Below, piece after piece: positions 46,238-58,209 of a stretch of 64,000 nt of DNA. The notes below the pieces were generated by a model, which saw nothing but the letters and a program-made list of their open reading frames with translations, did not search any database and was not told the DNA's origin. How positions within the stretch are numbered: the first letter of the stretch is position 1; the number at the start of each line of letters is the position of its first letter. Source of the stretch: Deltaproteobacteria bacterium (lineage in GTDB: Bacteria; Desulfobacterota; Desulfarculia; Adiutricales; Adiutricaceae); contig JAISCZ010000130.1 in the NCBI GenBank assembly GCA_031265205.1, positions 62,001 to 126,000 of the forward strand, in the 5' to 3' direction. Position numbers and translations under genes: made by a program.

Positions 46238-47220
46238 TAGCTTAAAACCGTCTTCGCGCCGTCAAAATCGAACTTGAAGCGGAGTTCCTCCAAGCCCTCT
46301 TCCCGCATGGCCTTCCGGAGGCGCGTCTTGTCCTCGGCGAGGAACATCAGAAAGCCCCCGCCCCCGGCGCCCACGAGCTTGCCGCCCACGGCCCCGTTTT
46401 GGAGGGCGACGTTGTAGGAATTGTCGATCTTGAGATTGGACATGCCGCCGGTGCGTTTCTTTTTGTTCTCCCAGTGCTCGTCCATCATTTTCCCGAAGGC
46501 GAAAAGGTCGCCTTTTTCCAGCGCCTCCTGGCTTCTTAGGCCCAGATCCTTCACGTAACGCAGGTTCTGGAGCATGTCGGAGTCCCTTTTTTGGCTCTTG
46601 TCCTTTTGGTCTTTCAAAAGATCCCCCGCGCTCCGGGTAAAGCCCGTGAAAAAGAGGCAGAGCCTTTCCTCAAGCTCGAAGAGGGAGTCGATGGGGATAT
46701 TGAGGGGCTTCGCGTCCACCGAGTCGTCGGGATTGAAGTAGAAGCGGGTGAGGCCCCCGTAGGCCGCGATGTACTGGTCCTGCTTGCCGATGGGCTCGCC
46801 GAGGAGATCGATTTCAATGTGGGCCGCGAGCTCGGCGAGCTCCTGGGGGAGAATCACCTGGCGGCGGTGGGCGTAAAGGGCTTTTAAGAGGGCCGTGGTA
46901 AAGGACCCGGAAGAGCCTAAGCCCGTCCCCGCCGGAATGTCGGCGAGGGTGGTGATCTCGATTTGCGGGGTTTTGAGGTTTTGCAGCCTTAAGGCCTCGC
47001 GGATGATGCGGTGCTTGACCTCGCTCACCGCGCGGACGGCCTCCAACTGGGAGTATTTAAGGTAAATGCCCTCGTTGAAGGGCCTTAGAATAGTCACGTA
47101 GACGTATTTGTCGATGGCCGCGGCGATGAGAAAACCGCCTCCCTGTTCCCGGTAATAGGAGGGGAGATCGGTTCCCCCGCCCCCGAGGCTGACGCGAAGC
47201 GGCGAGCGCGTGATGATCAT
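46237..47220 (-). CDS. hddA: D-glycero-alpha-D-manno-heptose 7-phosphate kinase
   Basis: The 327-residue GHMP kinase starts IITRSPLRVSLGGGGTDLPSYY, has the ATP-binding PAGTGLGSSGSFTTALL (~94-110), GKQDQYIAAYGGL and the C-terminal VGAGGGGFLMFL. This set is that of HddA, which phosphorylates heptose 7-phosphate at C1. GAGGAAAAAAG precedes the ATG. With gmhA, gmhB and hddC the pathway to GDP-D-glycero-alpha-D-manno-heptose is complete in this operon. Confidence 0.9.
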   Translation of the reverse strand: MIITRSPLRVSLGGGGTDLPSYYREQGGGFLIAAAIDKYVYVTILRPFNEGIYLKYSQLEAVRAVSEVKHRIIREALRLQNLKTPQIEITTLADIPAGTGLGSSGSFTTALLKALYAHRRQVILPQELAELAAHIEIDLLGEPIGKQDQYIAAYGGLTRFYFNPDDSVDAKPLNIPIDSLFELEERLCLFFTGFTRSAGDLLKDQKDKSQKRDSDMLQNLRYVKDLGLRSQEALEKGDLFAFGKMMDEHWENKKKRTGGMSNLKIDNSYNVALQNGAVGGKLVGAGGGGFLMFLAEDKTRLRKAMREEGLEELRFKFDFDGAKTVLS

Positions 47221-47356
47221 CTTTTTTCCTCGAAAAGGCGCGCGCGGGAAAAAGCCCTAACGGCGCGACGCTTGAGTGGCGAAAGCGTTCCCAAGCCCCA
47301 TTTTACCGGAAATCCGCGCCCAGGGCCAAAAGGGGAAAAGCCCTTGGGGGCGGCCT

Positions 47357-48247
47357 CTAGGCCGCCACCCCCACGGGGTGGGCGGTCACCTTAAAGCGGC
47401 TGTCCGCGAGGCGCGAGACCAGCGGCCAGGGGACGAGGCGCCAGACGGGAGAACGCCGGGTAAAGCCCAAATTTTTTAAAATCTTATAGGCGATAATCTG
47501 GCTGAACCCGGGCGCGAAACCCTTAAACTCCGGCCTAAAGCCGCTTTTTTCCATGGCCAGGGCCAAGGCGCCCGGCTCGAAAAAACTCATGTGCGCGTCC
47601 GGGATCCCGGCGTAGGACCAGGAGTCGAGCTTATGGCGGTAGGGCCAGGCGTTCCCCGTGGTGAGGAAGAGGATCCCGCCCTCCTTTAAGAGGGGCCTAA
47701 TCCGGCGCAAGAAAGCGACGGGCTCGGGATCGTGCTCAATCACCTCGATGGCCGTCACGAAATCGAAGGGGCCCTCGCGGGAGAGAGACTCGGCGCCCAG
47801 GATAAAAGAGCCCTCGCTCCCCTCGCCCTCGTCCGGGGCTTGGCCGTAGGGCTCGTAGCCGAAGGCGGAAAGGCCTTTTTCCCGCGCGTGGCGCGTCAGG
47901 CTCCCCATCCCGCAGCCGTAGTCCAGCCACTTGGCCTCCGGGTTGTCCTTCCCCTTCAGGAAATGGAAGACGCGCGCGATCCCCTCCCACTCAAGGGAGC
48001 GTAGGGTTTCCCGGGGGTATTGGTGATCATAGAGATAATTGACCATGGGGTCCGCGCCTTCCCCCCGGTAGTAGGCCTCGGTGTAAACGTTCGCGAAGTC
48101 GGTCCGGTAATCCGGGATAAAGGAAAAGTGGCACCCCGGGCAGTGAAAGAGGGCGTAATCTTTAATGGGCGCCGTCCGGCCGCGGCGCGAGCAGGCGTAC
48201 TGGCTGGCGGTCCCGCAGATGGGACAGGGTTTTTCCGCCTCGCTCAT
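47357..48247 (-). CDS. SAM methyltransferase with N-terminal zinc ribbon
   Basis: The 296-residue protein has CPICG (~8-12) and CPGCHF (~37-42), a four-Cys ribbon, followed by a Methyltransf_23 domain: LDYGCGMGSLTRHA (SAM motif I), FDFVTAIEVIEHDPEP and LLKEGGILFLTT. This architecture is common in sugar C- or O-methyltransferases of surface polysaccharide clusters. Its start overlaps the stop of the glycosyltransferase gene by four bases (ATGA). Confidence 0.85.
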   Translation of the reverse strand: MSEAEKPCPICGTASQYACSRRGRTAPIKDYALFHCPGCHFSFIPDYRTDFANVYTEAYYRGEGADPMVNYLYDHQYPRETLRSLEWEGIARVFHFLKGKDNPEAKWLDYGCGMGSLTRHAREKGLSAFGYEPYGQAPDEGEGSEGSFILGAESLSREGPFDFVTAIEVIEHDPEPVAFLRRIRPLLKEGGILFLTTGNAWPYRHKLDSWSYAGIPDAHMSFFEPGALALAMEKSGFRPEFKGFAPGFSQIIAYKILKNLGFTRRSPVWRLVPWPLVSRLADSRFKVTAHPVGVAA

Positions 48248-49254
48248 GATTCCGCTTCCCTTCCGGGGGAAAGGAGCCTTTCCGGCTCGCGGTGGGGGTA
48301 GAGCGAGCCCTGGGCCTCCTTGAAGCCCACCGCCTCCTCCACGATAAAAATGGGCCGCCGCTTGGTCTCCTCGTAAATGCGCCCGATATAGGCCCCCAAT
48401 ATCCCCATGCCGACGAACTGGCAGCCGGTGAGGAAGAGGAAAAAGACCGCCAGGGTCGCGAGACCGGTGGCGAACTGGTACCAGCCGGTGACTTTGCCGA
48501 CGAGAAGGACCAGGGCGGCGACGATGGCGAGCCCCGCCATGATGAAACCCGCGAAGGTCATGAGGCGCAGAAGGGCCCCCGAAAAGGCGATGACCCCGTT
48601 AAAGCCGATAAAGATCCCCCCGGTGAAGCGGAAATATTTCCCCTCGCCCCCCGCGCGCGGCTTGCGGTCAAAGGGCACGAGCTTGTATTTGTAGCCCACG
48701 ACCGCGGTAAGTCCCCGCAAAAAGGCGTTCGTCTCCTTGAGGCGCAAGAGCTCGGTTACCACCTCGCGGTCCAGGAGCCGAAAATCCCCGCAGTTGCGGG
48801 GGATCTCCACGATGGCCGTCTTGTTGATAAACCAATAGGCGCAGTAGGCCACGATCCGCTTGACGATATTGTCCCCCTCCCGGCTCCGGCGCTGGGGGAT
48901 CGCCACCTTATACTTCCCTTCCCGCCAGACCGCGACCAAGTCCGCGATAACCTCGGGGGGATCCTGGAGGTCCACGTCCATGACGATGACGGCCCGCCCG
49001 GTGGAATAGGCCAGCCCCCCCCAGATGGCCCCGGGCTGCCCGAAGCGCCGGGAAAATTTAAGGAGCTTAACCCGTCCGTCCTCGCGGTTGGCGGCGGTCA
49101 CGATCTCTTCCGTCCGGTCCGTCGAGGGATCCATGGCGAAAATGATTTCGTAGTCCTCCCCGACGCCTTTTAAGACCTCCCGGACCTTTTCCAGATAGAT
49201 GGGGATGGAAGACTCCTCGTTAAAGACCGGAACCACCAAGCTTAACTCAGGCAT
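48244..49254 (-). CDS. GT2 polyprenyl-phosphate glycosyltransferase (GtrB/DPM-like)
   Basis: The 336-residue enzyme has an N-terminal GT-A fold: LVVPVFNEESSIPIYL, the DxD-type VDLQDPPEVI (~95-104), and RRSREGDNIVKR; two C-terminal membrane helices follow (~228-255 and ~263-290). Such enzymes load a sugar onto undecaprenyl phosphate for later transfer outside the inner membrane, commonly with a GtrA flippase. It is the first gene of the nine-gene minus-strand operon ending at 42489. Sugar donor unknown. Confidence 0.87.
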   Translation of the reverse strand: MPELSLVVPVFNEESSIPIYLEKVREVLKGVGEDYEIIFAMDPSTDRTEEIVTAANREDGRVKLLKFSRRFGQPGAIWGGLAYSTGRAVIVMDVDLQDPPEVIADLVAVWREGKYKVAIPQRRSREGDNIVKRIVAYCAYWFINKTAIVEIPRNCGDFRLLDREVVTELLRLKETNAFLRGLTAVVGYKYKLVPFDRKPRAGGEGKYFRFTGGIFIGFNGVIAFSGALLRLMTFAGFIMAGLAIVAALVLLVGKVTGWYQFATGLATLAVFFLFLTGCQFVGMGILGAYIGRIYEETKRRPIFIVEEAVGFKEAQGSLYPHREPERLLSPGREAES

Positions 49255-49573
49255 TAAAAATATCCTTGCGGCCGCGCGGGCGCGGCGCGGGGCTTTCCCT
49301 TAAAAGTGGGGGGAGTGGAAAAAGCGAAAGGCGGGAATTTTCTGGAAAAGAAAAAAGGAAGGGAGGCGCGCGCTTGGGGAAAAGGCCCCTCGTTGGAGGG
49401 AAAAATCTTGGCCCGCTTGGGGGAGAGAGCCCAAAGAGCGCGGAAAGCCGCTAGCGGGGCGCTCCCGGCGCGGCGGGCGCCCCGCGCCCCAAGGCGCGGG
49501 CCCTTAAAAGAAAGGCGCGTAAAGAAGAAAACGGGCGGGGTTATTTTACAACAGTTCCCCGCCAAACTCCAAA

Positions 49574-50170
49574 AAGGTCGGCGCGCTTGGGACGCTTTCT
49601 CTCGCGGCCTCTCTCTTTCGCTTTCGCGCTCGCTCTTTTTCTTTCTCCCCCGCCCCGGGAATTCTCCGGAAGGGCCCTTCCCCCTTACGCCTTTTCCCGC
49701 GCGCGGGCCTTAATTAACTCGGCCACGACTTATCCGCGTCGCGCGAGCGAGGCGACTGTCCGCGTTCGCTCTCTCGCGTGGACGTGGTCGTAATCCGTGG
49801 CCAAGCCCACGGCCTTAATCCCGCGCTCGTTAAAATAGGCGCCGTCCTGGCCTCCGCCGGAGGAAACGGTTAAGGTCGGCGCGCTTGGGTCGCTGGGGGC
49901 GCCTTCTCTCGCGGCCTCGCTCTTTCGCTTTCGCGCTCGCTCTTTTTCCCCCCGCCCCGGGAGGTCTCCGGAAGGGCCCTTCCCCCTTACGCCTTTTCCC
50001 GCGCGCGGGCCTTAATTAACTCGGCCACGACCTCGCCGCATTTCACGAGCGAGGTAATTCTCTGCGTTTCCTCTCTCGTGTGGACGTGGTCGTAATCCGT
50101 GGCCAAGCCCACGGCCTTAATCCCGCGCTCGTTAAAATAGTTGCCGTCCTGGCCTCCGCCGGAGGAAACG
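49574..50170. repeat. 298-base tandem direct repeat
   Basis: Two adjacent units (49574-49871 and 49872-50170) share high nucleotide similarity, including AAGGTCGGCGCGCTTGGG at both starts. The right unit contains the 3' end of the peptidase gene; the left unit holds a decayed copy of it. Bases 49255-49573 contain no recognisable gene. Confidence 0.9.
49685..49871 (-). pseudogene. duplicated 3' fragment of the peptidase gene
   Basis: This repeats the last ~60 codons of the peptidase at 49987 at high similarity, apart from a divergent patch at 49722-49772. It has no 5' portion and cannot encode an active enzyme. Confidence 0.85.
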
Positions 50171-51114
50171 ATTTCGGAGCGAATCCCCATCGCGGCGAAA
50201 ACTTCCGTGGCCAAAGTCAGGACGGGCTCGCCCGTGGGGACGTGAAAGGCGGCGTATTCTAAGTTGAAGTCAATTTTCAGCCCCGCGCCTCGCTCCTGGC
50301 AGGCCTCGCGGAAAACGCGCTGGATAAGCCCCAGGTAAAAATCAAGTTCCACGGAATCGTGGCTCCGGGCCTCGCCGATGAGCGTGACGCGGTCGCAGAC
50401 GATATTGGTGGCCTCGCCCCCCTCGATAAGCCCGATATTGCCCGTGGTGAGCGGGGAAACCCGACCCTCCGGGAGCCGCCCGATGGCCACCGCCGCCACG
50501 TTGATGGCGTTAAGGCCCTTTTCCGGGCTCATGCCGGCGTGGCTGGCCCGTCCCTCGATGACGATGGTATAGGTGTATTGGGTCGGGGCCCGGTTGACCA
50601 GCGTCCCCAGGGTCCCGCCGCTATCGAGCACGTAGGCTATTTGGGACTTGAGGCGCGACATGTCCATATGCCGGACTCCCAATAGGCCCACCTCCTCCGC
50701 CACGGAAAAGACGATCTCCACGTCCCCGTGGGGGGCCTTTTCGCGCGTAACGCGCCGTATTCCGTCCAAAATGGCCACGATCCCGGAAACGTCGTCCGCG
50801 GCGAGGATCGTGTCCCCCTCGCTCACGATTTGATCGTCCTCGGGCTTCACCAAAGGGACGATTTTACCCGGATTGGCGACCCTGTCCATGTGGGCGGAGA
50901 AGAGGAGCGCCGGAATGGCGGCGTCCCCCGGCCAGCGCGCGATTAAGTTGCCGGCGTTTCCCCCTATAACCTCGCCCACGCGGTCCTCGGTGACCTCCAG
51001 GCCGAGAGAGAGGAGTTTGCGCGTCAAAACGTCGGCGATAAGCCGTTCTTGGCGGGAGTGGGTGGGGATCTGGACGAGTTCCACGAACTCCTCGATAATC
51101 GGGGGATAGGCCAT
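49987..51114 (-). CDS. M20-family peptidase, PepT-like
   Basis: The 375-residue metallopeptidase has all dinuclear-zinc elements: SAHMD (~75-79), the bridging Asp in AADDVSG, SVAEEVG (catalytic Glu pair), LDSGG and the final DHVHT. The SHAGMSPEKGLNAI segment is the dimerisation-lid part. It fits the PepT/PepT2 tripeptidase group in cytosolic peptide turnover. ATG at 51114 (MAYPPIIEEF) starts at the conserved region; the frame is open upstream but not conserved. The 3' end is duplicated downstream. Confidence 0.87.
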   Translation of the reverse strand: MAYPPIIEEFVELVQIPTHSRQERLIADVLTRKLLSLGLEVTEDRVGEVIGGNAGNLIARWPGDAAIPALLFSAHMDRVANPGKIVPLVKPEDDQIVSEGDTILAADDVSGIVAILDGIRRVTREKAPHGDVEIVFSVAEEVGLLGVRHMDMSRLKSQIAYVLDSGGTLGTLVNRAPTQYTYTIVIEGRASHAGMSPEKGLNAINVAAVAIGRLPEGRVSPLTTGNIGLIEGGEATNIVCDRVTLIGEARSHDSVELDFYLGLIQRVFREACQERGAGLKIDFNLEYAAFHVPTGEPVLTLATEVFAAMGIRSEIVSSGGGQDGNYFNERGIKAVGLATDYDHVHTREETQRITSLVKCGEVVAELIKARAREKA

Positions 51115-51350
51115 ATTCGCTCCAAAGGGTTGGGGATATTTTAAAAAAGCGGGAAGCCGCCCGCGACCGCGAGGGAAGTCCGTCAAAAGTCCGCGAAAAG
51201 CCCGGCGAAGGGCCGTCAAATTATAGGCCCAGGCCCCCTCTCTCGCAAGGCGCGCTTTAAGGAGGGGCCGGGGGCGCGGAGACGCTTGGGCGCGTGGATT
51301 GATGGGCGGGCGCGCAGACGCGAGTTTGGGCGGTTAAAGGTTTTAGGGGC

Positions 51351-51378
51351 TTGACAAGGGCTCCCCGCGCCATATATA
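51351..51378 (+). promoter_or_regulatory. sigma-70 promoter
   Basis: A perfect TTGACA, a 16-base spacer and TATATA (17 to ATATAA) on the plus strand, about 320 bases upstream of the H1-tail gene. The rest of 51115-51695 has no recognisable gene. Confidence 0.65.
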
Positions 51379-51695
51379 AGTTAAAAAAAATAACGCTTGG
51401 TATTTAGAGTAAGCTAGCTTACAAGATTTTAAGGAGCTTTGGGACAGCGCCGACGCGAGCCGACTTCGGGCTTGTCCGCGCGTCGCGCGCGACCCTAGCG
51501 GACCCTGTCCTTATTTGTGACGTTTGAGCGTCTCGCGGGCGGCCAAAGGGCGCGCGCGCTTAAGCGTTCCAATATTCAATTTAGCGTCGCCATTTTGGGG
51601 GGATTCCGTTCCCCATGGCCATCCACGCCCGCCCGCGAGCGCGCCAAAATCATGGCGTTCGCGGTCGGAAAAACGAAACTCGCGGGGCGAGCCAC

Positions 51696-52574
51696 ATGAA
51701 AAAATCAGACCAAGACGAAAAAAAACCGGCCAAAGCCGTAAAAAAGCCGGTCGCCGCCGCGAAAAAACCGACCCCGATCGCGAAAAAGACGGCCGCCGCC
51801 CCGAAAAAAGCGGCCCCGGCCGCGCGAAAAACGGCCCCGATCGCGAAAAAGACGGCCGCCGCCGCCCCGAAAAAAGCGGCCGCCGCCGCGCGAAAGACGG
51901 CCCCGATCGCGAAAAAGACGGCCGCCGCCGCCCCGAAAAAAGCGGCCGCCGCCGCGAAAAAGCCGGCCATCGGAGTTCCGCTCTACGCTTTCCGAGTTGA
52001 GCTCAGAGACGTGCGGCCGAAGGTTTGGCGGTATTTTTACGTTCCTTCCAACATAAATTTGGCTCAATTTCACCGTCTCGTCCAAGAAGTTATGGGGTGG
52101 TCGAACTGCCACCTTTATTCCTTCACCATTTTTGGCCAGGAGTTCTACCATCCGGACGAAGACTACAGCGATTCTTGCGGAGAGGACTGCCTCAATCCCG
52201 CGAAAACCAAGCTAAACAGGCTTGGCCTCTACAAAGGCGCCAGGTTCAGGTACCTCTACGATATGGGCGACTCGTGGGAACACGTCATCAAAGTGCTTGA
52301 CACCGACTTCGTCCCCCCGACGCCAGGGCAGGCGAGCGGCTGCTACAAAGGCGCGAGGGCTTGCCCTCCGGAGGACTGCGGAGGCTCGTACGGGTACGCG
52401 GAGCTTCTGGAAGTCCTTGGGAACCCGAAACACGAGGACCACGAGGACATGATGGAGTGGACGGGCGGCGGCTTTGACCCCGAAGAATTTGACCTGGGAT
52501 GGAAAAACCGCGCGCTTCAGCGCGTGGCGTCCCGGTTCAGAACCGTGCCGGATTGGCGTCAAGCCGACGGTTGA
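51696..52574 (+). CDS. histone H1-like tail fused to pRiA4b ORF-3-like domain
   Basis: The 292-residue protein has a strongly basic N-terminal ~90 residues made of about three 22-residue repeats of the form PIAKKTAAAAPKKAAAAARKTA, resembling bacterial H1-like and AlgR3-type tails. From about residue 95 it matches the plasmid pRiA4b ORF-3-like family: PLYAFRVELRDVRPKVWRYF, LAQFHRLVQEVMGWSNCHLYSF, YLYDMGDSWEHVI and CPPEDCGGSYGY. The family's function is not established, and copies often travel with mobile elements. The tail probably binds DNA without specificity. ATG at 51696 starts directly before the tail. Confidence 0.75.
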   Translation: MKKSDQDEKKPAKAVKKPVAAAKKPTPIAKKTAAAPKKAAPAARKTAPIAKKTAAAAPKKAAAAARKTAPIAKKTAAAAPKKAAAAAKKPAIGVPLYAFRVELRDVRPKVWRYFYVPSNINLAQFHRLVQEVMGWSNCHLYSFTIFGQEFYHPDEDYSDSCGEDCLNPAKTKLNRLGLYKGARFRYLYDMGDSWEHVIKVLDTDFVPPTPGQASGCYKGARACPPEDCGGSYGYAELLEVLGNPKHEDHEDMMEWTGGGFDPEEFDLGWKNRALQRVASRFRTVPDWRQADG

Positions 52575-52621
52575 GCGTCAAGCCGACGGTTGAGCGTCAA
52601 GGCGACGGTTGAGCGTCAAGG
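52557..52621 (+). repeat. 19-base tandem repeat across a stop codon
   Basis: Three copies of TCAAGCCGACGGTTGAGCG (the third with one change) run over the stop codon of the H1-tail gene; its TGA lies inside the first copy. Confidence 0.85.
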
Positions 52622-53416
52622 CTTGGCCGCGCGCGTCCCTCGCCCTTCTCTCCAAGAGGAAGGCCCCCTTGGAGTCCCGAGGGGCTTGCCTTCCGGTCAA
52701 CCTTAAGAGAACTGTTTGACGCGCGCCCTTACGGCTCGGGACTTTTCGCGAAAGTCCTTTGCGGGCGCTTTCCGGTCGCCGCCCTCGCGCCTTCCCCGGC
52801 GCGCGAGAGATTTTTGGGGCCCCTTCCGGCGAGGATTGCCCTTAGGGTCTTCTCCGCCTCCGGGCCTCTCTTGGCCCGCGCGCGCCCGAGCCTCCTCTTC
52901 TCCCCCTTGTGACGCTTGGGAGTTTGAAGCGTCGCCGCGCGCGGCGACCGGGCCCCCAAGCGCGCCGCGTGAATATCGCTTTAACGATATTCGCGCGCCG
53001 CGCCAAATCGCGAAGGGTCTTCGCTCCGCCGCGCGGCTCCGCGACCCTCAAAGGAGGCGCTTGTCGCGCTTTTTTTCCGTCGCGCGAGGCTAGCCGCGCG
53101 CCCGCGCGGTTCCTTTAAGGTCAACGCCTTCAGTAACAATAAACGCCTTCCGTAAAATTTCCGTGGGCGGCGCGGAAAGCCGCGAATTCCGGGCGCCTAA
53201 ATTGGCCTCGCTAGCGCGGGGGCCCCCCCGTAAGCCGCTTTCGGGGCGCTCAAAAAAAGGCGCGTCCTCGCGTCCCTAAGGAGAGCCGCCAGGCGCCTCC
53301 GGGCCTAAACCGGCGCGCGCGGTTTCTTGGGCGCTATTCTCGCGTCCGCGGCGGATTGGCTTGACGCTGAGGGTTTTCTCGCGGCGGGCGGGGCGCGCCT
53401 TGGCCGCGGTGGGCGT
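52622..53416. other. intergenic region with one strong palindrome
   Basis: No gene recognised. GAATATCG and CGATATTC flank CTTTAA at 52971-52992, a 22-base perfect inverted repeat that stands out from the GC-rich surroundings. It may be an operator or a transcript hairpin. Confidence 0.4.
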
Positions 53417-53923
53417 TTAGGCCTTTTCCTCGACCAAGGGAAAATACCTGACGGACTCTTTTTTCAGCTCGCGGAGGCTTTCCAGGGCCAACCACTCCCC
53501 CGTCCCCGCGAGGCTCGCCATGGACGCGGCCATTTTCGCGAGCTCCTCCCGGCGCGTGGCGTGGATCATGGTATAAAGGTTATAGGGCCAATCGGGGCCT
53601 TCCTCCCGCAGATAGCAATGGGAGACGTAGGGGAGAGCCGCGAACGCGGCCCCCGTCTCCTCCACCCGGGCGGCCGGAATCTTCCAGACGAGCATGGCGT
53701 TGGCCTTAAACCCGGAGCGCTGGTGGACCAGAACCGCCCCAAACCTCCGGATGAGGCCTCTTTCGCGGTAAAGCTCAATTTTTTGGAGAACCTCCTCCTC
53801 CGTCACGCCCAGGCGGCGGGCGACGGCGGCGAAGGGCCGCGCCAAAATGTCCAGATCTCCGCTCAGCTCGCGGATTAAGGCCCTGTCCAAATCGCTTAAA
53901 GGAATATTTTCCGCGCCGCTCAC
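53417..53923 (-). CDS. ahbB: siroheme decarboxylase subunit AhbB
   Basis: The 168-residue protein is Lrp/AsnC-like, with a winged-helix part (~10-60) and a ligand domain with IRRFGAVLVHQRSGFKANAM and the SHCYLREEGPDWPYNLYTMIHA stretch typical of AhbB/NirD-L-type proteins. With AhbA it decarboxylates siroheme to 12,18-didecarboxysiroheme in the alternative haem pathway. I chose GTG at 53923 because AAGGA lies nine bases before it. It is transcribed away from ahbC-ahbD-ahbA, so the cluster is split into two divergent units. Confidence 0.88.
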   Translation of the reverse strand: MSGAENIPLSDLDRALIRELSGDLDILARPFAAVARRLGVTEEEVLQKIELYRERGLIRRFGAVLVHQRSGFKANAMLVWKIPAARVEETGAAFAALPYVSHCYLREEGPDWPYNLYTMIHATRREELAKMAASMASLAGTGEWLALESLRELKKESVRYFPLVEEKA

Positions 53924-54240
53924 TTTTTTTCTTCCTTGGGGGTTCGCGCGCCACAAGCGCCCTAGCGCGACCCTTTTCGTCTGGACCGGTCTACCGCCGC
54001 GTCTCGCCGCGCCTCGCCTCGCCGCGCCGCGCCGCGCCGCGCGAGGCGGGCCCCTTTGGCCGCGGGCGTCCCGCGCAAGTTAGCGCTTTTTAACCCTCCA
54101 AATACTAACTCGTGAAATTTAATTTCGCAAACTTAAAGCGCGCCCTGGCGCGCCAAGCCCGCCGGACGGCCAAGCGGCGACCGTTCCCCAAAAGCGCGGA
54201 AGGATCCCCGCCCGTCGCCCTGAACGCGCCGCGACGCGCC

Positions 54241-54269
54241 TTAACAAAAGCTTTTTCCTGTGCTAAAAT
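54241..54269 (+). promoter_or_regulatory. promoter of ahbC-ahbD-ahbA
   Basis: TTAACA, a 17-base spacer and TAAAAT with extended TG stand 53 bases before the ahbC ATG. This supports the later start codon of ahbC. The divergent region 53924-54240 is otherwise CCGCG-rich with no gene. Confidence 0.7.
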
Positions 54270-54321
54270 CCGTTTTAGGTCACGCCGTTGTGGCCCTTTT
54301 TTTGGGAAAGCTTGGGCTTTA

Positions 54322-55548
54322 ATGATCGGAATCTCCAAATTATACTGCGGCGCCGTGGAACCGTCGGATCTCCTCCGCTACGGCGGGCGCTCCCAAAATC
54401 TGCCCAGCCACCTTTTACAGTTTTCCACGGACAAAAAACCGGTCATCGCCTGGAACGTTACCCGCGCCTGCAACCTTTCCTGCCTTCACTGCTACGCCTC
54501 GGCCACCGCCGGCCCAGCCCCCGACGAGCTTTCTCTCGCCGAGGCCCGCGCTTTGGTTGAGAGCCTCGCCGCTTTCGGGGTTCCGGTCATCCTTTTTTCC
54601 GGGGGCGAGCCCCTCCTTCATCCCCACATCTTTGAGCTGATCTCCCTGGCCGTTTCCCGAGGCCTGCGGGCCGTGCTTTCCACCAACGGGCTTTTAATAA
54701 CCCCGGACGTGGCCTCCCGCCTCAAGGATATCGGCCTTTCCTACGTGGGCGTCAGCCTGGACGGCCTCGCGGCCCATCACGACTGGATGCGCCGCAAGCC
54801 CGGGGCCTTTGGCAAAACCATGGAAGGCATTTCCACCTGCCTTTCCAAGGGCCTCAAGGTGGGCTTGAGGCTCACCATCGCCCGCAGCAACCAAAACGAT
54901 ATCGGCGGCCTTTTCGATCTCATGGCCGAGCGTGATATCCCCCGGGCCTGCTTCTACCACCTCGTGGACACCGGCCAAAACCCCGCCCTCGCCCAAGAGG
55001 CCTTAACGCTCGCGGAAACCCGCCAGGCGGTGGATCTCATCGCGGCGCGGACCCTTGCCCTCTTCCAAAAGGGCCAGCGCCCCGAAGTTCTCACCGTGGA
55101 CAACCAGGCGGACGGACCCTATATTTACCTAAAGCTCCGCGCCGAGGGAAACCTCGAAAGGGCCGAAAAGGCCCTCGAGCTTTTAAAGCTCAACGGGGGC
55201 TCCAGCTCGGGCTTGGGCGTCGGCTGCGTTTCCTGGAACGGGGACGTCTTTCCGGACCAGTTCTGGCGCTCCTTAAAGTTGGGCTCCACGCGGGAAAAAC
55301 CCTTTCCGGCCATTTGGACGGATCCGCGCGACGAGTTTCTGATGGCCCTCAAAAACAAAAAAGACCACCTGACCGGACGCTGCCGGGAATGCCGTTTTCT
55401 CGACGCCTGCGGCGGGGGCTTGCGCGCGCGCGCCGCCCAAGCCACGGGAGACGTCTGGGCCCCGGATCCCGCCTGCTATCTCACGGACGAGGAGACGCGC
55501 CTCCCCTCTCCCCTCTACGCCGCCGCCGAGCGCAATGCCGCGAGCTAA
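54322..55548 (+). CDS. ahbC: 12,18-didecarboxysiroheme deacetylase AhbC (radical SAM)
   Basis: The 408-residue radical SAM enzyme starts MIGISKLYCGAVEPSDLLRYGG, a near signature for AhbC/NirJ-like proteins. CNLSCLHCYASA (~52-63) is the CxxxCxxC cluster motif and SGGEPLLHP binds SAM. A C-terminal SPASM-like set of cysteines follows (GVGCVSWNG, CRECRFLDACGG). It removes the acetate side chains to give Fe-coproporphyrin III. ATG at 54322 was chosen from this conserved N-terminus and the promoter at 54241-54269. It overlaps ahbD by 14 bases. Confidence 0.92.
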   Translation: MIGISKLYCGAVEPSDLLRYGGRSQNLPSHLLQFSTDKKPVIAWNVTRACNLSCLHCYASATAGPAPDELSLAEARALVESLAAFGVPVILFSGGEPLLHPHIFELISLAVSRGLRAVLSTNGLLITPDVASRLKDIGLSYVGVSLDGLAAHHDWMRRKPGAFGKTMEGISTCLSKGLKVGLRLTIARSNQNDIGGLFDLMAERDIPRACFYHLVDTGQNPALAQEALTLAETRQAVDLIAARTLALFQKGQRPEVLTVDNQADGPYIYLKLRAEGNLERAEKALELLKLNGGSSSGLGVGCVSWNGDVFPDQFWRSLKLGSTREKPFPAIWTDPRDEFLMALKNKKDHLTGRCRECRFLDACGGGLRARAAQATGDVWAPDPACYLTDEETRLPSPLYAAAERNAAS

Positions 55549-56584
55549 TCTCCCGCCGCCCCGCCTCGTGGCCTGGGAGACCACCCGGGCCTGCGATTTG
55601 GCGTGCCGCCACTGCCGCGCCGAGGCGCGGCCCGGGCCCGCCCCGGGGGAACTGGACGCGAAAGAGGGCGCGGAACTCTTGCGGCAAATCTCCCTGTGGG
55701 ATCCGCCCCCCATGGTCATTCTCTCCGGGGGAGAGCCTTTAAAGCGGCCCGATATCCTAGAATTGGCCTCCCTGGGGACCTCCCTGGGGCTCAGGATGCT
55801 CCTTTCCACCAACGGGACCGCGCTTGACCCGTCCCTCGTCCGCGCGCTCAAAAAGGCGGGGATCAAACGCCTCAGCCTCAGCCTCGACGGCCACGACGCG
55901 GCCAGCCACGACGCCTTCCGGGGAGTTCGGGGGGCCTTCGCGAGCCTTAAAAGGAGCGCGCGGCTCCTCGTGGAAGGCGACCTCCCCTTTCAGATCAATT
56001 CCACCGTCACCGCCGGCAATTTAAAGGATCTCGTCGCGATCCAGGATCTGGCCTTCTCCCTGGGCGCCGTGGCCCACCATATCTTTCTGCTGGTCCCCGT
56101 GGGCCGGGCCAAAGACTGGGACGAGGCCCCCTTGGAACCCCAGGACTACGAAAACGCCCTCCTCCTTTTAAAAGACCGCGAGATCTCCCTTCAGCTCGAA
56201 ATCAAAGCCACCTGCGCCCCGCAGTACCAGCGGATCTCCCGGGAAAAAGGCCAAGTCTCGGCCCGCTCCGGTCGGGGCTGCCTGGGCGGGCAGGGCTTTC
56301 TCTTTATTAGCCACGACGGGATCGCCCAGGCCTGCGGCTATTTGCCCCTCCCCGCCGGAAACGTCCGCGCCGAACCCTTGCGGGAAATCTACCAAAACTC
56401 CCCGCTTTTCGGGGATCTGCGCGATCGCGCGCGCTATCGCGGCAAATGCGGCCTCTGCGAGTATTTTAAGGTCTGCGGCGGCTGCCGGGCCCGCGCCCAC
56501 GCCCAAGGGGATTGTCTGGGCCCGGAGCCACTGTGCCCCCATCTTCCCCAGGCCCTCCGAAGGAGCCCCGATGTCGCCCCATAG
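55535..56584 (+). CDS. ahbD: haem synthase AhbD (radical SAM)
   Basis: The 349-residue radical SAM enzyme has CDLACRHCRAEA (CxxxCxxC, ~21-32), LSGGEPLKRPD and the C-terminal auxiliary-cluster cysteines GRGCLGG, CGYLP, CGLCEYFKVCGGCRARA. AhbD converts the two propionates of Fe-coproporphyrin III to vinyl groups, giving haem b. Overlaps with ahbC (14 bases) and ahbA (14 bases) show tight translational coupling. A peptide-modifying SPASM enzyme is less likely given the context. Confidence 0.9.
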   Translation: MPRANLPPPRLVAWETTRACDLACRHCRAEARPGPAPGELDAKEGAELLRQISLWDPPPMVILSGGEPLKRPDILELASLGTSLGLRMLLSTNGTALDPSLVRALKKAGIKRLSLSLDGHDAASHDAFRGVRGAFASLKRSARLLVEGDLPFQINSTVTAGNLKDLVAIQDLAFSLGAVAHHIFLLVPVGRAKDWDEAPLEPQDYENALLLLKDREISLQLEIKATCAPQYQRISREKGQVSARSGRGCLGGQGFLFISHDGIAQACGYLPLPAGNVRAEPLREIYQNSPLFGDLRDRARYRGKCGLCEYFKVCGGCRARAHAQGDCLGPEPLCPHLPQALRRSPDVAP

Positions 56585-57053
56585 CCTCTCCGCGACCGAG
56601 CGTCTCATTTTAAACGACATTCAGGACCGCTTTCCCGCCGTCAGCCGCCCTTTCCAAGAGGTGGCCGAACGCCTCAACAAGGAGCGCGGCCTGGCCCTCA
56701 CCGAGGAAGAGGTCCTGGAAAAGGTCGCCGCCCTCAAAAAGAAAGGCTATTTCCGCAGGCTTGGAGCCATTTTCAATTCCCGGCCCTTAGGCTACCTTTC
56801 GACGCTCTGCGCGGCCAAGGTCCCCCCGGAGAAAATCGAGGAGTTCGGGGCCCTGGTCAATTCCTATCCCCAAACAACCCACAACTACGTCCGGAACAAC
56901 CCCTTAAACCTGTGGTTTACCTTCTGCTACGCTGACCCCATGGAACTGGAGTCCTTTTTAAGGGATATCAGGGAAAAAACGGGGATAACCGCTATTTTTG
57001 AGCTGAAATCCCGGAAAATCTTCAAAATCAGGGCGGTTTTCGACGTAACTTAA
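56571..57053 (+). CDS. ahbA: siroheme decarboxylase subunit AhbA
   Basis: The 160-residue Lrp/AsnC-like protein has an HTH-like region (LNDIQDRFPAVSRPFQEVAERL) and the AhbA marks GYFRRLGAIFNSRPLGYLSTL, TTHNYVRNNPLNLWFTFCYA and a final KIFKIRAVFDV. It forms a heterodimer with AhbB. It is the last gene of the ahbC-ahbD-ahbA unit. The A/B assignment follows these motifs (THNYxR for A, SHCY…WPYNLYTM for B). Confidence 0.88.
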   Translation: MSPHSLSATERLILNDIQDRFPAVSRPFQEVAERLNKERGLALTEEEVLEKVAALKKKGYFRRLGAIFNSRPLGYLSTLCAAKVPPEKIEEFGALVNSYPQTTHNYVRNNPLNLWFTFCYADPMELESFLRDIREKTGITAIFELKSRKIFKIRAVFDVT

Positions 57054-57107
57054 GGCCCTTAAGCCAGGGGATCCCACGGGGAAAGGCGACGCGCGCGAAA
57101 AAAAAGC

Positions 57108-57136
57108 TTGCTTTTCCGGAACGGATCCCGTATAGT
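57108..57136 (+). promoter_or_regulatory. promoter of the tRNA pair
   Basis: TTGCTT, 17-base spacer and TATAGT, with the tRNA-Val gene 38 bases beyond the -10 box. Confidence 0.7.
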
Positions 57137-57173
57137 TCTTTCCTGGTTAACGGTAGAGATTTTCCTCGAATCA

Positions 57174-57249
57174 GGGCGGTTAACTCAGCGGTTAGAGTGC
57201 CATCCTCACACGGTGGAAGTCGGAGGTTCGAATCCTCTACCGCCCACCA
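57174..57249 (+). tRNA. tRNA-Val (CAC)
   Basis: A full cloverleaf can be drawn: acceptor GGGCGGT / ACCGCCC, anticodon stem CCATC / GGTGG with loop CTCACAC (anticodon CAC), T arm GGAGG-TTCGAAT-CCTCT and an encoded CCA end. It reads GUG valine codons. Confidence 0.95.
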
Positions 57250-57275
57250 GTTAGTTTTGTTTATATAGGTTAAGT

Positions 57276-57360
57276 GCCGAAGTGGTGGAACTGGTAGACA
57301 CGCCATCTTGAGGGGGTGGTGGGGAAACTCGTGCCGGTTCAAGTCCGGCCTTCGGCACCA
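57276..57360 (+). tRNA. tRNA-Leu (GAG)
   Basis: Class II tRNA with acceptor GCCGAAG / CTTCGGC, anticodon loop TTGAGGG (anticodon GAG), a long variable arm (TGGGGAAACTCG), T arm with TTCAAGT and encoded CCA. AT-rich foreign-looking DNA begins some 700 bases downstream, so its 3' end is a candidate integration site. Confidence 0.95.
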
Positions 57361-57415
57361 TTGGATTAATTCAGCGTGCCCGATAGCTTAAATATGTTAT
57401 CTCGACCTCAGATCG

Positions 57416-57449
57416 CCTCAAAACGGACGATTTGGGGTTTTCTTTTTTT
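57416..57449 (+). terminator. terminator of the tRNA operon
   Basis: CCTCAAA and TTTGGGG pair (one G-T) around a short loop, followed by a T-rich tract. Confidence 0.65.
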
Positions 57450-58209
57450 GTCGCGCCGTCAGGCGCCGAACCCCCGCCACGCGCGCCATAGGTCGCGGCT
57501 AGCGCGAACCGGAAATAGCGATAGATGAACTTGCCTATGTTGGGGCTGAAAAGGCGGGCCCCTCTTAGCGCCCGAGCGAAAACGCGTGTCCACCTAAAGG
57601 CGGCCTCTGGCGCCACAGCGAAGTCGCCGCGCGAAGGACCTCTGGTCTTAGGCGCCTTAAGCCTCCCGCTATCTTCCGGCCGAAGACAGCTTTGCCGGAC
57701 GCTTGGCGGAGGCAAGTTTTTTTGAGGATCTCCGCGCGCCACGAATCATTTAAGTTCTCCGCGCGAACCGACACCCATCGCCGGCATCGCGCCTCAGCCG
57801 GGAAATGGGCCCGAAATGGGTCCGTTCTGGCTGAGGCGAAGGGGCTTTAGGCGCGAAGAAGTACTTATCCGCCGGACCCGCGAGTCAACTTTGAGGAACG
57901 CCAACAAGCGACGGAACTTCGGGGGGTGAGCCAGACCTCGCGTAGCGTCCGCTTTTTAAAAGAGCCAATTCGACCATATATCCGCGCGGGTGTTAAAGCT
58001 TCGCTCCAAAGACGACTCCAAATATCCAAATAGCCGTGAACGGATGCGAAAAAGATCAACATATTTTACGAAAAGTTGTAAATTATTGAAAATTATCGAT
58101 ATTTTTCTTGAAATTTTTAAAAAAATTGAATTTTTTCTCAAAATTCAGTTTTTTTGCCTCTTACGGTATAATTTTTCCGGGATTTTAGGTAATAAGTAAA
58201 GACAAAATT
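57450..58209. other. island boundary region, no gene seen
   Basis: The first part is GC-rich and contains an inverted repeat (CGCCTCAGCC at 57790-57799 with GGCTGAGGCG at 57829-57838) enclosing two GAAATGGG copies. From about 58050 the DNA turns strongly AT-rich with long A and T runs. A TATAAT-like box occurs at about 58167-58172. No gene is recognisable. Confidence 0.5.

What the first reader, a model, noticed from the sequence alone, without database searches (positions are those of the whole stretch)
51696..52574. Histone H1-like tail fused to a pRiA4b ORF-3 domain
Three near-identical 22-residue Lys/Ala/Pro repeats precede a complete pRiA4b ORF-3-like domain in one frame behind a good promoter. 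H1-like tails are known from bacterial DNA-compacting and regulatory proteins. Joined to this domain of unknown function, the tail suggests DNA targeting. The repeats could change number by slippage.
Basis: partly seen in the sequence, partly recalled or inferred. Interest (0 to 1): 0.55.

Follow-up and report, generated by a model that had tools for sequence, protein, structure and literature searches.

The report
Lysine-rich tail on pRiA4b ORF-3 protein
A bacterial protein of a widespread but uncharacterised family carries a long, strongly positive tail of repeated lysine pairs, a feature that keeps reappearing in this bacterial family and probably lets the protein cling to DNA or another negatively charged polymer.

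Summary
One frame (51696-52574, +, 292 aa) joins a 93-residue Lys/Ala/Pro tail (net +24) to a complete PF07929 domain (189.8 bits). The start at 51696 is supported by a paralog. The repeats sit on a finer unit: 13 Lys/Arg pairs spaced 7 residues apart (twice 8). Tails are not unique to this gene: in the same bacterial family 13 of 46 full PF07929 copies carry a K/A/P stretch, against 0 of 78 copies from other genomes; the tree needs at least 4 gains or losses, unit lengths differ, and in one strict-rule copy the tail is C-terminal. No partner gene or transposase is conserved nearby. The tail is predicted disordered. Two AlphaFold models of the domain match MM3350 (2i1s), then SNAPC3, a DNA-contacting subunit of human SNAPc (Z 10.2 and 8.8, clear of the next fold), but sequence evidence for that kinship is not significant. 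Best reading: the tail tethers the domain to DNA (or RNA/polyphosphate) without sequence preference, and the domain adds specificity or a partner. The promoter claim is weak. Verdict: a lineage-specific variant of a known, unexplained family, with a testable lead to a eukaryotic promoter factor.

The parts
51351..51380 (+). promoter-like TTGACA-18 nt-TATAAG, 315 nt before the start codon
   Evidence: sequence; not in the consensus scan list
51534..51695 (+). leader shared with paralog C110, 123 of 158 aligned bases identical
51599..51614 (+). GGGGATTCCGTTCCCC; the paralog leader has the perfect palindrome GGGGAACGCGTTCCCC; the covering pattern is found only at these two places in 4.57 Mb
51696..51974 (+). 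Lys/Ala/Pro tail, residues 1-93, 13 KK/RK pairs at about 7-residue spacing
   Evidence: no secondary structure in the model
51762..51956 (+). three super-repeats of 21, 22 and 22 residues
51984..52496 (+). PRiA4_ORF3 domain PF07929 (residues 97-267)
52260..52283 (+). motif D189-x-G-D-x-W-x-H196, named residues invariant
   Evidence: identical in all 81 other rows of A2
52556..52620 (+). 19-bp tandem repeat (3.4 copies) across the stop codon

Best explanation
It is a translated PF07929 protein with an N-terminal polycationic, disordered tail. The tail works like AlgP/H1 tails: paired lysines every two helical turns neutralise a polyanion, most likely DNA, and hold the domain on the nucleoid. 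The folded domain, of ubiquitin-like build and close in fold to SNAPC3, then contacts a site or partner, possibly its own operator in the shared leader. Shown: open reading frame, composition, periodicity, lineage distribution, repeated gain/loss, predicted disorder, fold match. Inferred: DNA as ligand, nucleoid tethering, autoregulation.
For: Start and frame. Tail net +24 with 7-residue lysine pairs. Tails in 13 of 46 family copies by a strict 40-residue rule against 0 of 78 copies from elsewhere; 6 of 33 PF07929 ORFs against 2 of 142 other ORFs in the same regions. Different unit lengths in relatives (6 in G021; 8 in the C-terminal tail of G027:C92) and C-terminal placement; at least 4 forced changes on the tree. 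Fold match to SNAPC3 in two models; SNAPC3 contacts promoter DNA (PMC9652321, PMC9758055, passages). [quoted passage not shown]
Against: No binding data. SNAPC3 binds DNA poorly alone and its zinc fingers do not read the site. Sequence support for SNAPC3 kinship is not significant: E 0.039, 15 of 200 shuffles as good. The 14 long PF07929 proteins scanned for fusion partners show SEC-C, DUF6398, DUF6933, a calcium-binding domain, weak TPR and only one weak sigma-70 region 4 match, no clear DNA-binding partner. Many family copies do without a tail. The palindrome is imperfect in this gene (5 of 8 pairs, read).
Confidence: 0.45

Rival explanations
1. The tail binds another polyanion: polyphosphate granules, ribosomal or messenger RNA, or an acidic protein; DNA is incidental.
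For: AlgP, with a similar composition, sits on polyphosphate granules (PMC9239181, abstract and section 14). Another basic-tailed ORF, near paralog C105 in this genome, is an S4/pseudouridine synthase, an RNA enzyme.
Against: No polyphosphate gene or RNA partner was found next to the scanned copies; AlgP also binds DNA.
Confidence: 0.25
2. The tail is a tolerated, slippage-born linker without specific ligand, expanded from the short basic N-terminus that most PF07929 proteins have; it acts as a solubility spacer at most.
For: Typical copies have a short N-terminus (median 7 residues before the domain); the paralog's KTQDKTEKKPAKQ looks like the unexpanded state. Repeats are nearly identical, hence probably recent. 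Tail length varies strongly among close copies.
Against: Charge and composition recur in tails with different units and at the C-terminus; other ORFs in the same regions rarely have them (2 of 142).
Confidence: 0.2
3. It is cargo of a mobile element, as PF07929 is in ISAzba1-type transposons, and has no host role.
For: PF07929-like proteins are encoded in ISAzba1-group transposons (PMC3942029, passages), neighbour ISKpn19 on plasmids (PMC11125565, passages), and occur on 2740 of 72,556 plasmid records.
Against: Neighbours here are an M20-type peptidase and siroheme-decarboxylase/radical-SAM genes. No convincing terminal inverted repeat. The 20 ORFs scanned around copies in this and related genomes show no transposase.
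Confidence: 0.07
4. The tail serves export into a protist host and acts as a nuclear targeting signal there.
For: Lys-pair spacing recalls bipartite nuclear signals (recalled, not tested); the lineage is probably gut-associated (inferred).
Against: Genome of 4.57 Mb, not a reduced one; no secretion link tested; PF07929 is widespread in many phyla.
Confidence: 0.03

Closest known systems
PF07929 PRiA4_ORF3 family; MM3350 of Methanosarcina mazei (PDB 2i1s)
   Same: Whole domain matches by sequence and fold (Z 21.9, 172 residues, 1.9 A)
   Different: MM3350 has no tail and lacks the histidine of the D-x-G-D-x-W-x-H motif and two cysteines
AlgP / PhaF and chlamydial Hc2 (H1-like bacterial proteins)
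   Same: Lys/Ala/Pro-rich, repetitive, strongly basic tail
   Different: AlgP has KPAA units in a C-terminal tail on a helical N-terminus (PMC9239181, abstract and section 14); here 7-residue units, N-terminal, on a PF07929 domain. Hc2 seen in a search listing only (PMC2848022).
SNAPC3 (SNAP50), human SNAPc subunit
   Same: Second-best fold in two models: Z 10.2, 123 residues, 2.8 A (7zwc_b) and Z 8.8, 130 residues, 3.6 A (7zx8_b); both carry GD-(x)-[C/W]-E-H before a strand
   Different: 15% identity; no significant sequence match; SNAPC3 zinc ligands include cysteines that have no proven counterpart here
ISAzba1-group transposon passenger proteins
   Same: Same domain (PMC3942029, passages)
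   Different: No transposase or clear terminal repeats at this locus

Membership tests
PF07929 (PRiA4_ORF3) | score over Pfam's curated cut-off along the domain | tested here: met
   189.8 bits vs 26.6, positions 3-171 of 173
PF07929 (PRiA4_ORF3) | residues conserved across the family | tested here: met
   16 columns invariant in 82 rows, this protein included
PF07929 (PRiA4_ORF3) | fold of the solved member | tested here: met
   2i1s_A Z 21.9, 1.9 A over 172 residues
H1-like bacterial DNA-compacting proteins (AlgP, Hc2) | Lys/Ala/Pro-rich basic tail | tested here: met
   A 36, K 25, P 11 of 93, net +24
H1-like bacterial DNA-compacting proteins (AlgP, Hc2) | KPAA-type tetrapeptide unit (AlgP) | tested here: not met
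   unit is 7 residues
H1-like bacterial DNA-compacting proteins (AlgP, Hc2) | DNA binding | not testable with these tools
   needs protein
eukaryotic linker histone H1 | globular winged-helix domain | tested here: not met
   only PF07929 found; the folded part matches 2i1s
SNAPC3 / SNAP50 | same fold | tested here: met
   Z 8.5-10.2 over five entries and 7.3-8.8 over five entries; next fold 7.1 and 5.1
SNAPC3 / SNAP50 | significant sequence kinship | tested here: inconclusive
   hhalign E 0.039, Prob 1.3; 15 of 200 shuffles reach the score; no SNAP50 family among the 20 Pfam families listed at E<=1 for 82 members
SNAPC3 / SNAP50 | Zn site C221/H313/C317/H319 | tested here: inconclusive
   H196 falls on H319 only if one gap is placed by eye after GD; the hhalign alignment itself is ungapped there; other ligands not placed
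transposon passenger (ISAzba1 type) | adjacent transposase within terminal repeats | tested here: not met
   neighbour genes scanned are not transposases; repeats unconvincing

The most novel reading that the evidence does not exclude
PF07929 is the prokaryotic relative of the SNAPC3 core, the promoter-contacting scaffold of eukaryotic snRNA transcription; bacterial members, some carried by mobile elements, are DNA-site-binding proteins, and this lineage has repeatedly armed them with H1-like tails to hold them on the chromosome, with self-control through a palindrome in the leader.
Probability: 0.25. Interest if true: 0.75.

Novelty: new variant of a known kind. Interest (0 to 1): 0.42.

Why it matters
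PF07929 lies on 2740 of 72,556 plasmid records and in many phyla, yet its function is unknown. A lineage that repeatedly adds polycationic tails, and a fold match to a promoter-binding factor, give a concrete first hypothesis (DNA binding) and a place to test it. If the SNAPC3 kinship is real, it would give that subunit, described in 2022 as having no known homologous structure (PMC9652321, passage), a prokaryotic relative.

Tried and rejected
Tail elsewhere in the genome: the tail as protein finds only itself; as DNA, itself plus one 30-bp match (L035), taken as chance. NCBIfam, PHROGs and PADLOC give nothing real (best E 0.79, none, 0.025, the two matches lying on the low-complexity tail). 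Leader as structured RNA: no support, z -1.23 and +0.68, and Rfam finds only two tRNAs in 47000-57500. Phages: 4 of 50,697 records. BFVD: one hit at E<=0.001, a Barrevirus protein at TM 0.30, not followed. Other folds below SNAPC3 are mostly ubiquitin-like domains at Z<=7.1. SNAPC3 is not among the 50 rows that Foldseek itself lists by E-value; it appears only in the VIA-align second look.

Counting notes. Family copies: 51 rows in 20 of 37 genomes; 5 fragment rows dropped, 46 kept. By a looser rule 13 have N-terminal tails, plus one (G005:C149:4849) that I added by hand because an inner ATG had been chosen. That rule also includes the Arg/Pro-rich C105 copy, which the strict 40-residue rule does not. 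The looser rule C-terminal tails; G027:C61 is spurious by eye but kept its label in the tree (17 rows labelled). The strict rule counts 12 N-terminal and one C-terminal tail (G023). The 78 comparison copies come from the best 80 loci of 585 named hits with two probably gut loci (L038, L096) removed, so they are a similarity-ranked sample; the rule lacked the acidic-residue limit used, which only makes it laxer. Fisher values are not corrected for relatedness. In one search this gene is not counted as positive, since its ORF was taken from ATG 51615. The counts for f1 (11 of 38) contained duplicated loci and are superseded. A2 holds this protein plus 81 rows chosen for near-full domains; A3 holds 55 of these, picked by hand for spread.

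Novelty searches; as far as listings, abstracts' first lines and the passages I read show, none gave a function for the domain, a tail on it, or a SNAP50 link. Only open-licence PMC text was searched. Organism: G005:C187 and JAISMU010000045.1 share the length 78,314 and the match; the record is named Deltaproteobacteria bacterium Im510_bin51. A termite-gut origin and a place near Adiutricaceae are recalled/inferred (one search gives that family's lineage only).

Full report
What is there. The window lies at G000:C178:62001-126000 of a 4.57-Mb draft genome in 187 contigs. The ORF at 51696-52574 (+) encodes 292 residues. Residues 97-267 are a complete PRiA4_ORF3 domain (PF07929; 189.8 bits, cut-off 26.6). 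Residues 1-93 hold 36 Ala, 25 Lys, 11 Pro and 6 Thr, net charge +24. The deeper regularity is a Lys/Arg pair every seven residues from residue 2 to 88, 13 pairs in all, with ten spacings of 7 and two of 8; none of 5000 shuffles reaches the lag-7 count. In an alpha helix a step of seven would put the pairs on one face (inference).

Is it translated? In the same genome a second copy (C110) has the short N-terminus VKTQDKTEKKPAKQ before VPLYSF and no repeats. Aligning the two places our ATG 51696 on its GTG start, whereas the in-frame ATG 51615 is ACG there and the upstream reading frame is not kept. Tail and domain have nearly the same GC3 (0.72, 0.71). Tails of the same make-up stand between start codon and domain in other genomes. 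I take 51696 as the start.

Where else do tails occur? In the window's family (f1, 37 held genomes) PF07929 occurs in 20 genomes with 51 rows, 46 of them full copies. By a strict 40-residue rule 13 of 46 carry a K/A/P stretch, 12 at the N-terminus and 1 at the C-terminus; among 78 copies from other genomes, 0 do. In the window plus 20 fetched regions, 6 of 33 PF07929 ORFs but 2 of 142 other ORFs have such an end, so this is not a general habit of the regions sampled. Units differ: seven residues here, six in G021 (KKPAEA/KKPAPP), eight in the C-terminal tail of G027:C92 (KSPKSGAG) (read by eye; the G027:C92 tail passes the looser rule, not the strict one). On a tree of the 46 domains the tail label needs 8 changes, at least 4 forced by well-supported branches. 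The same chemistry was thus gained or lost repeatedly, which favours a use for the charge, although slippage probably makes the raw material.

Leader. The 160 bases before the start are 78% identical to those before C110 (123 of 158), more than the domain coding sequence (66%; third codon positions 61%), although the two domains fall into different clades (the fork joining this gene to its nearest copy is weak, 80/12). A pattern covering GGGGATTCCGTTCCCC here and the perfect palindrome GGGGAACGCGTTCCCC there occurs at these two places only in the genome. Selection on a control site or gene conversion can explain this; RNA structure is not supported.

Surroundings. Upstream on the other strand is an M20/M28-like peptidase; downstream are siroheme-decarboxylase-like regulators and two radical-SAM proteins. 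The third own copy lies between a T3SS/flagellar-type export ATPase and a citrate transporter. The 20 ORFs scanned around copies in this and related genomes are mostly housekeeping genes or unknowns, with one GmrSD_N protein. No partner is constant among them.

The domain. Sixteen residues are invariant in 82 rows, among them R112, H139, Y186, Y188, D189, D192, W194, H196, E226 and D227, which suggests a binding or metal site (inference). AlphaFold gives pLDDT mostly over 90 for the domain and 56-82 for the tail, with no secondary structure in it. After 2i1s (Z 21.9), the best fold is SNAPC3: Z 10.2 for 7zwc_b (123 residues, 2.8 A), 9fso_Z and 7zx8_b, against 7.1 for the next protein. A second model, from a Paludibacter member, repeats this: 24.1 for 2i1s, then SNAPC3 at 8.8-7.3, then 5.1. 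SNAPC3 has a central ubiquitin-like domain and a C2H2 zinc site C221/H313/C317/H319 (PMC9758055, passages), and three of its motifs contact promoter DNA, not its zinc fingers (PMC9652321, passages). The best local profile alignment sets FRYLYDMGDSWEHVIKVLDT against the [20 protein letters not shown] region, 40% identical over 25 columns, but E is 0.039 and Prob 1.3, and 15 of 200 shuffles do as well. So the fold link is clear, the kinship unproven. SNAPC3 does not bind DNA well alone, so a shared fold does not show DNA binding here.

Mechanism. I favour a tether: the tail holds the protein on DNA without sequence preference, and the domain supplies a site or a partner. AlgP shows that such tails bind DNA and also sit on polyphosphate granules (PMC9239181), so the ligand stays open. 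Alternatives are a neutral spacer and mobile-element cargo. PF07929-like proteins are encoded in ISAzba1-group transposons (PMC3942029, passages) and neighbour ISKpn19 on plasmids (PMC11125565, passages), but nothing mobile is seen at this locus.

Verdict. It is a lineage-specific variant of a known family of unknown function.

Noticed in passing
window 51534-51695 and G000:C110 leader (L031): Leader of two diverged paralogs is more alike (78%) than their coding sequence (66%), with a palindrome-like site found only there in the genome.
   Followed up: partly
window 52556-52620: A 19-bp unit is repeated 3.4 times across the stop codon; unit changes would alter the C-terminus.
   Followed up: no
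L120, L121, L122, L124, L125: Tandem groups of 2-4 PF07929 genes in genomes G032, G005 and G006.
   Followed up: partly
L128 (G013:C107): A PF07929 group with broken copies and internal stops beside intact ones.
   Followed up: no
L119:2739-3740 (G000:C105): An S4/pseudouridine synthase with a Lys/Ala/Asn-rich N-terminal tail, two genes from the third PF07929 copy.
   Followed up: no
L024:973-2073: PF07929 fused to DUF6933.
   Followed up: no
window 53417-57053: Two siroheme-decarboxylase-like regulators and two radical-SAM/SPASM proteins, looking like an alternative heme pathway cluster (name recalled).
   Followed up: no
window 49584-50170: A 302-bp tandem duplication (1.9 copies, 90%) reaching into the end of the peptidase gene.
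   Followed up: no
window 57174-57246 and 57276-57357: Two tRNA genes (Rfam).
   Followed up: no
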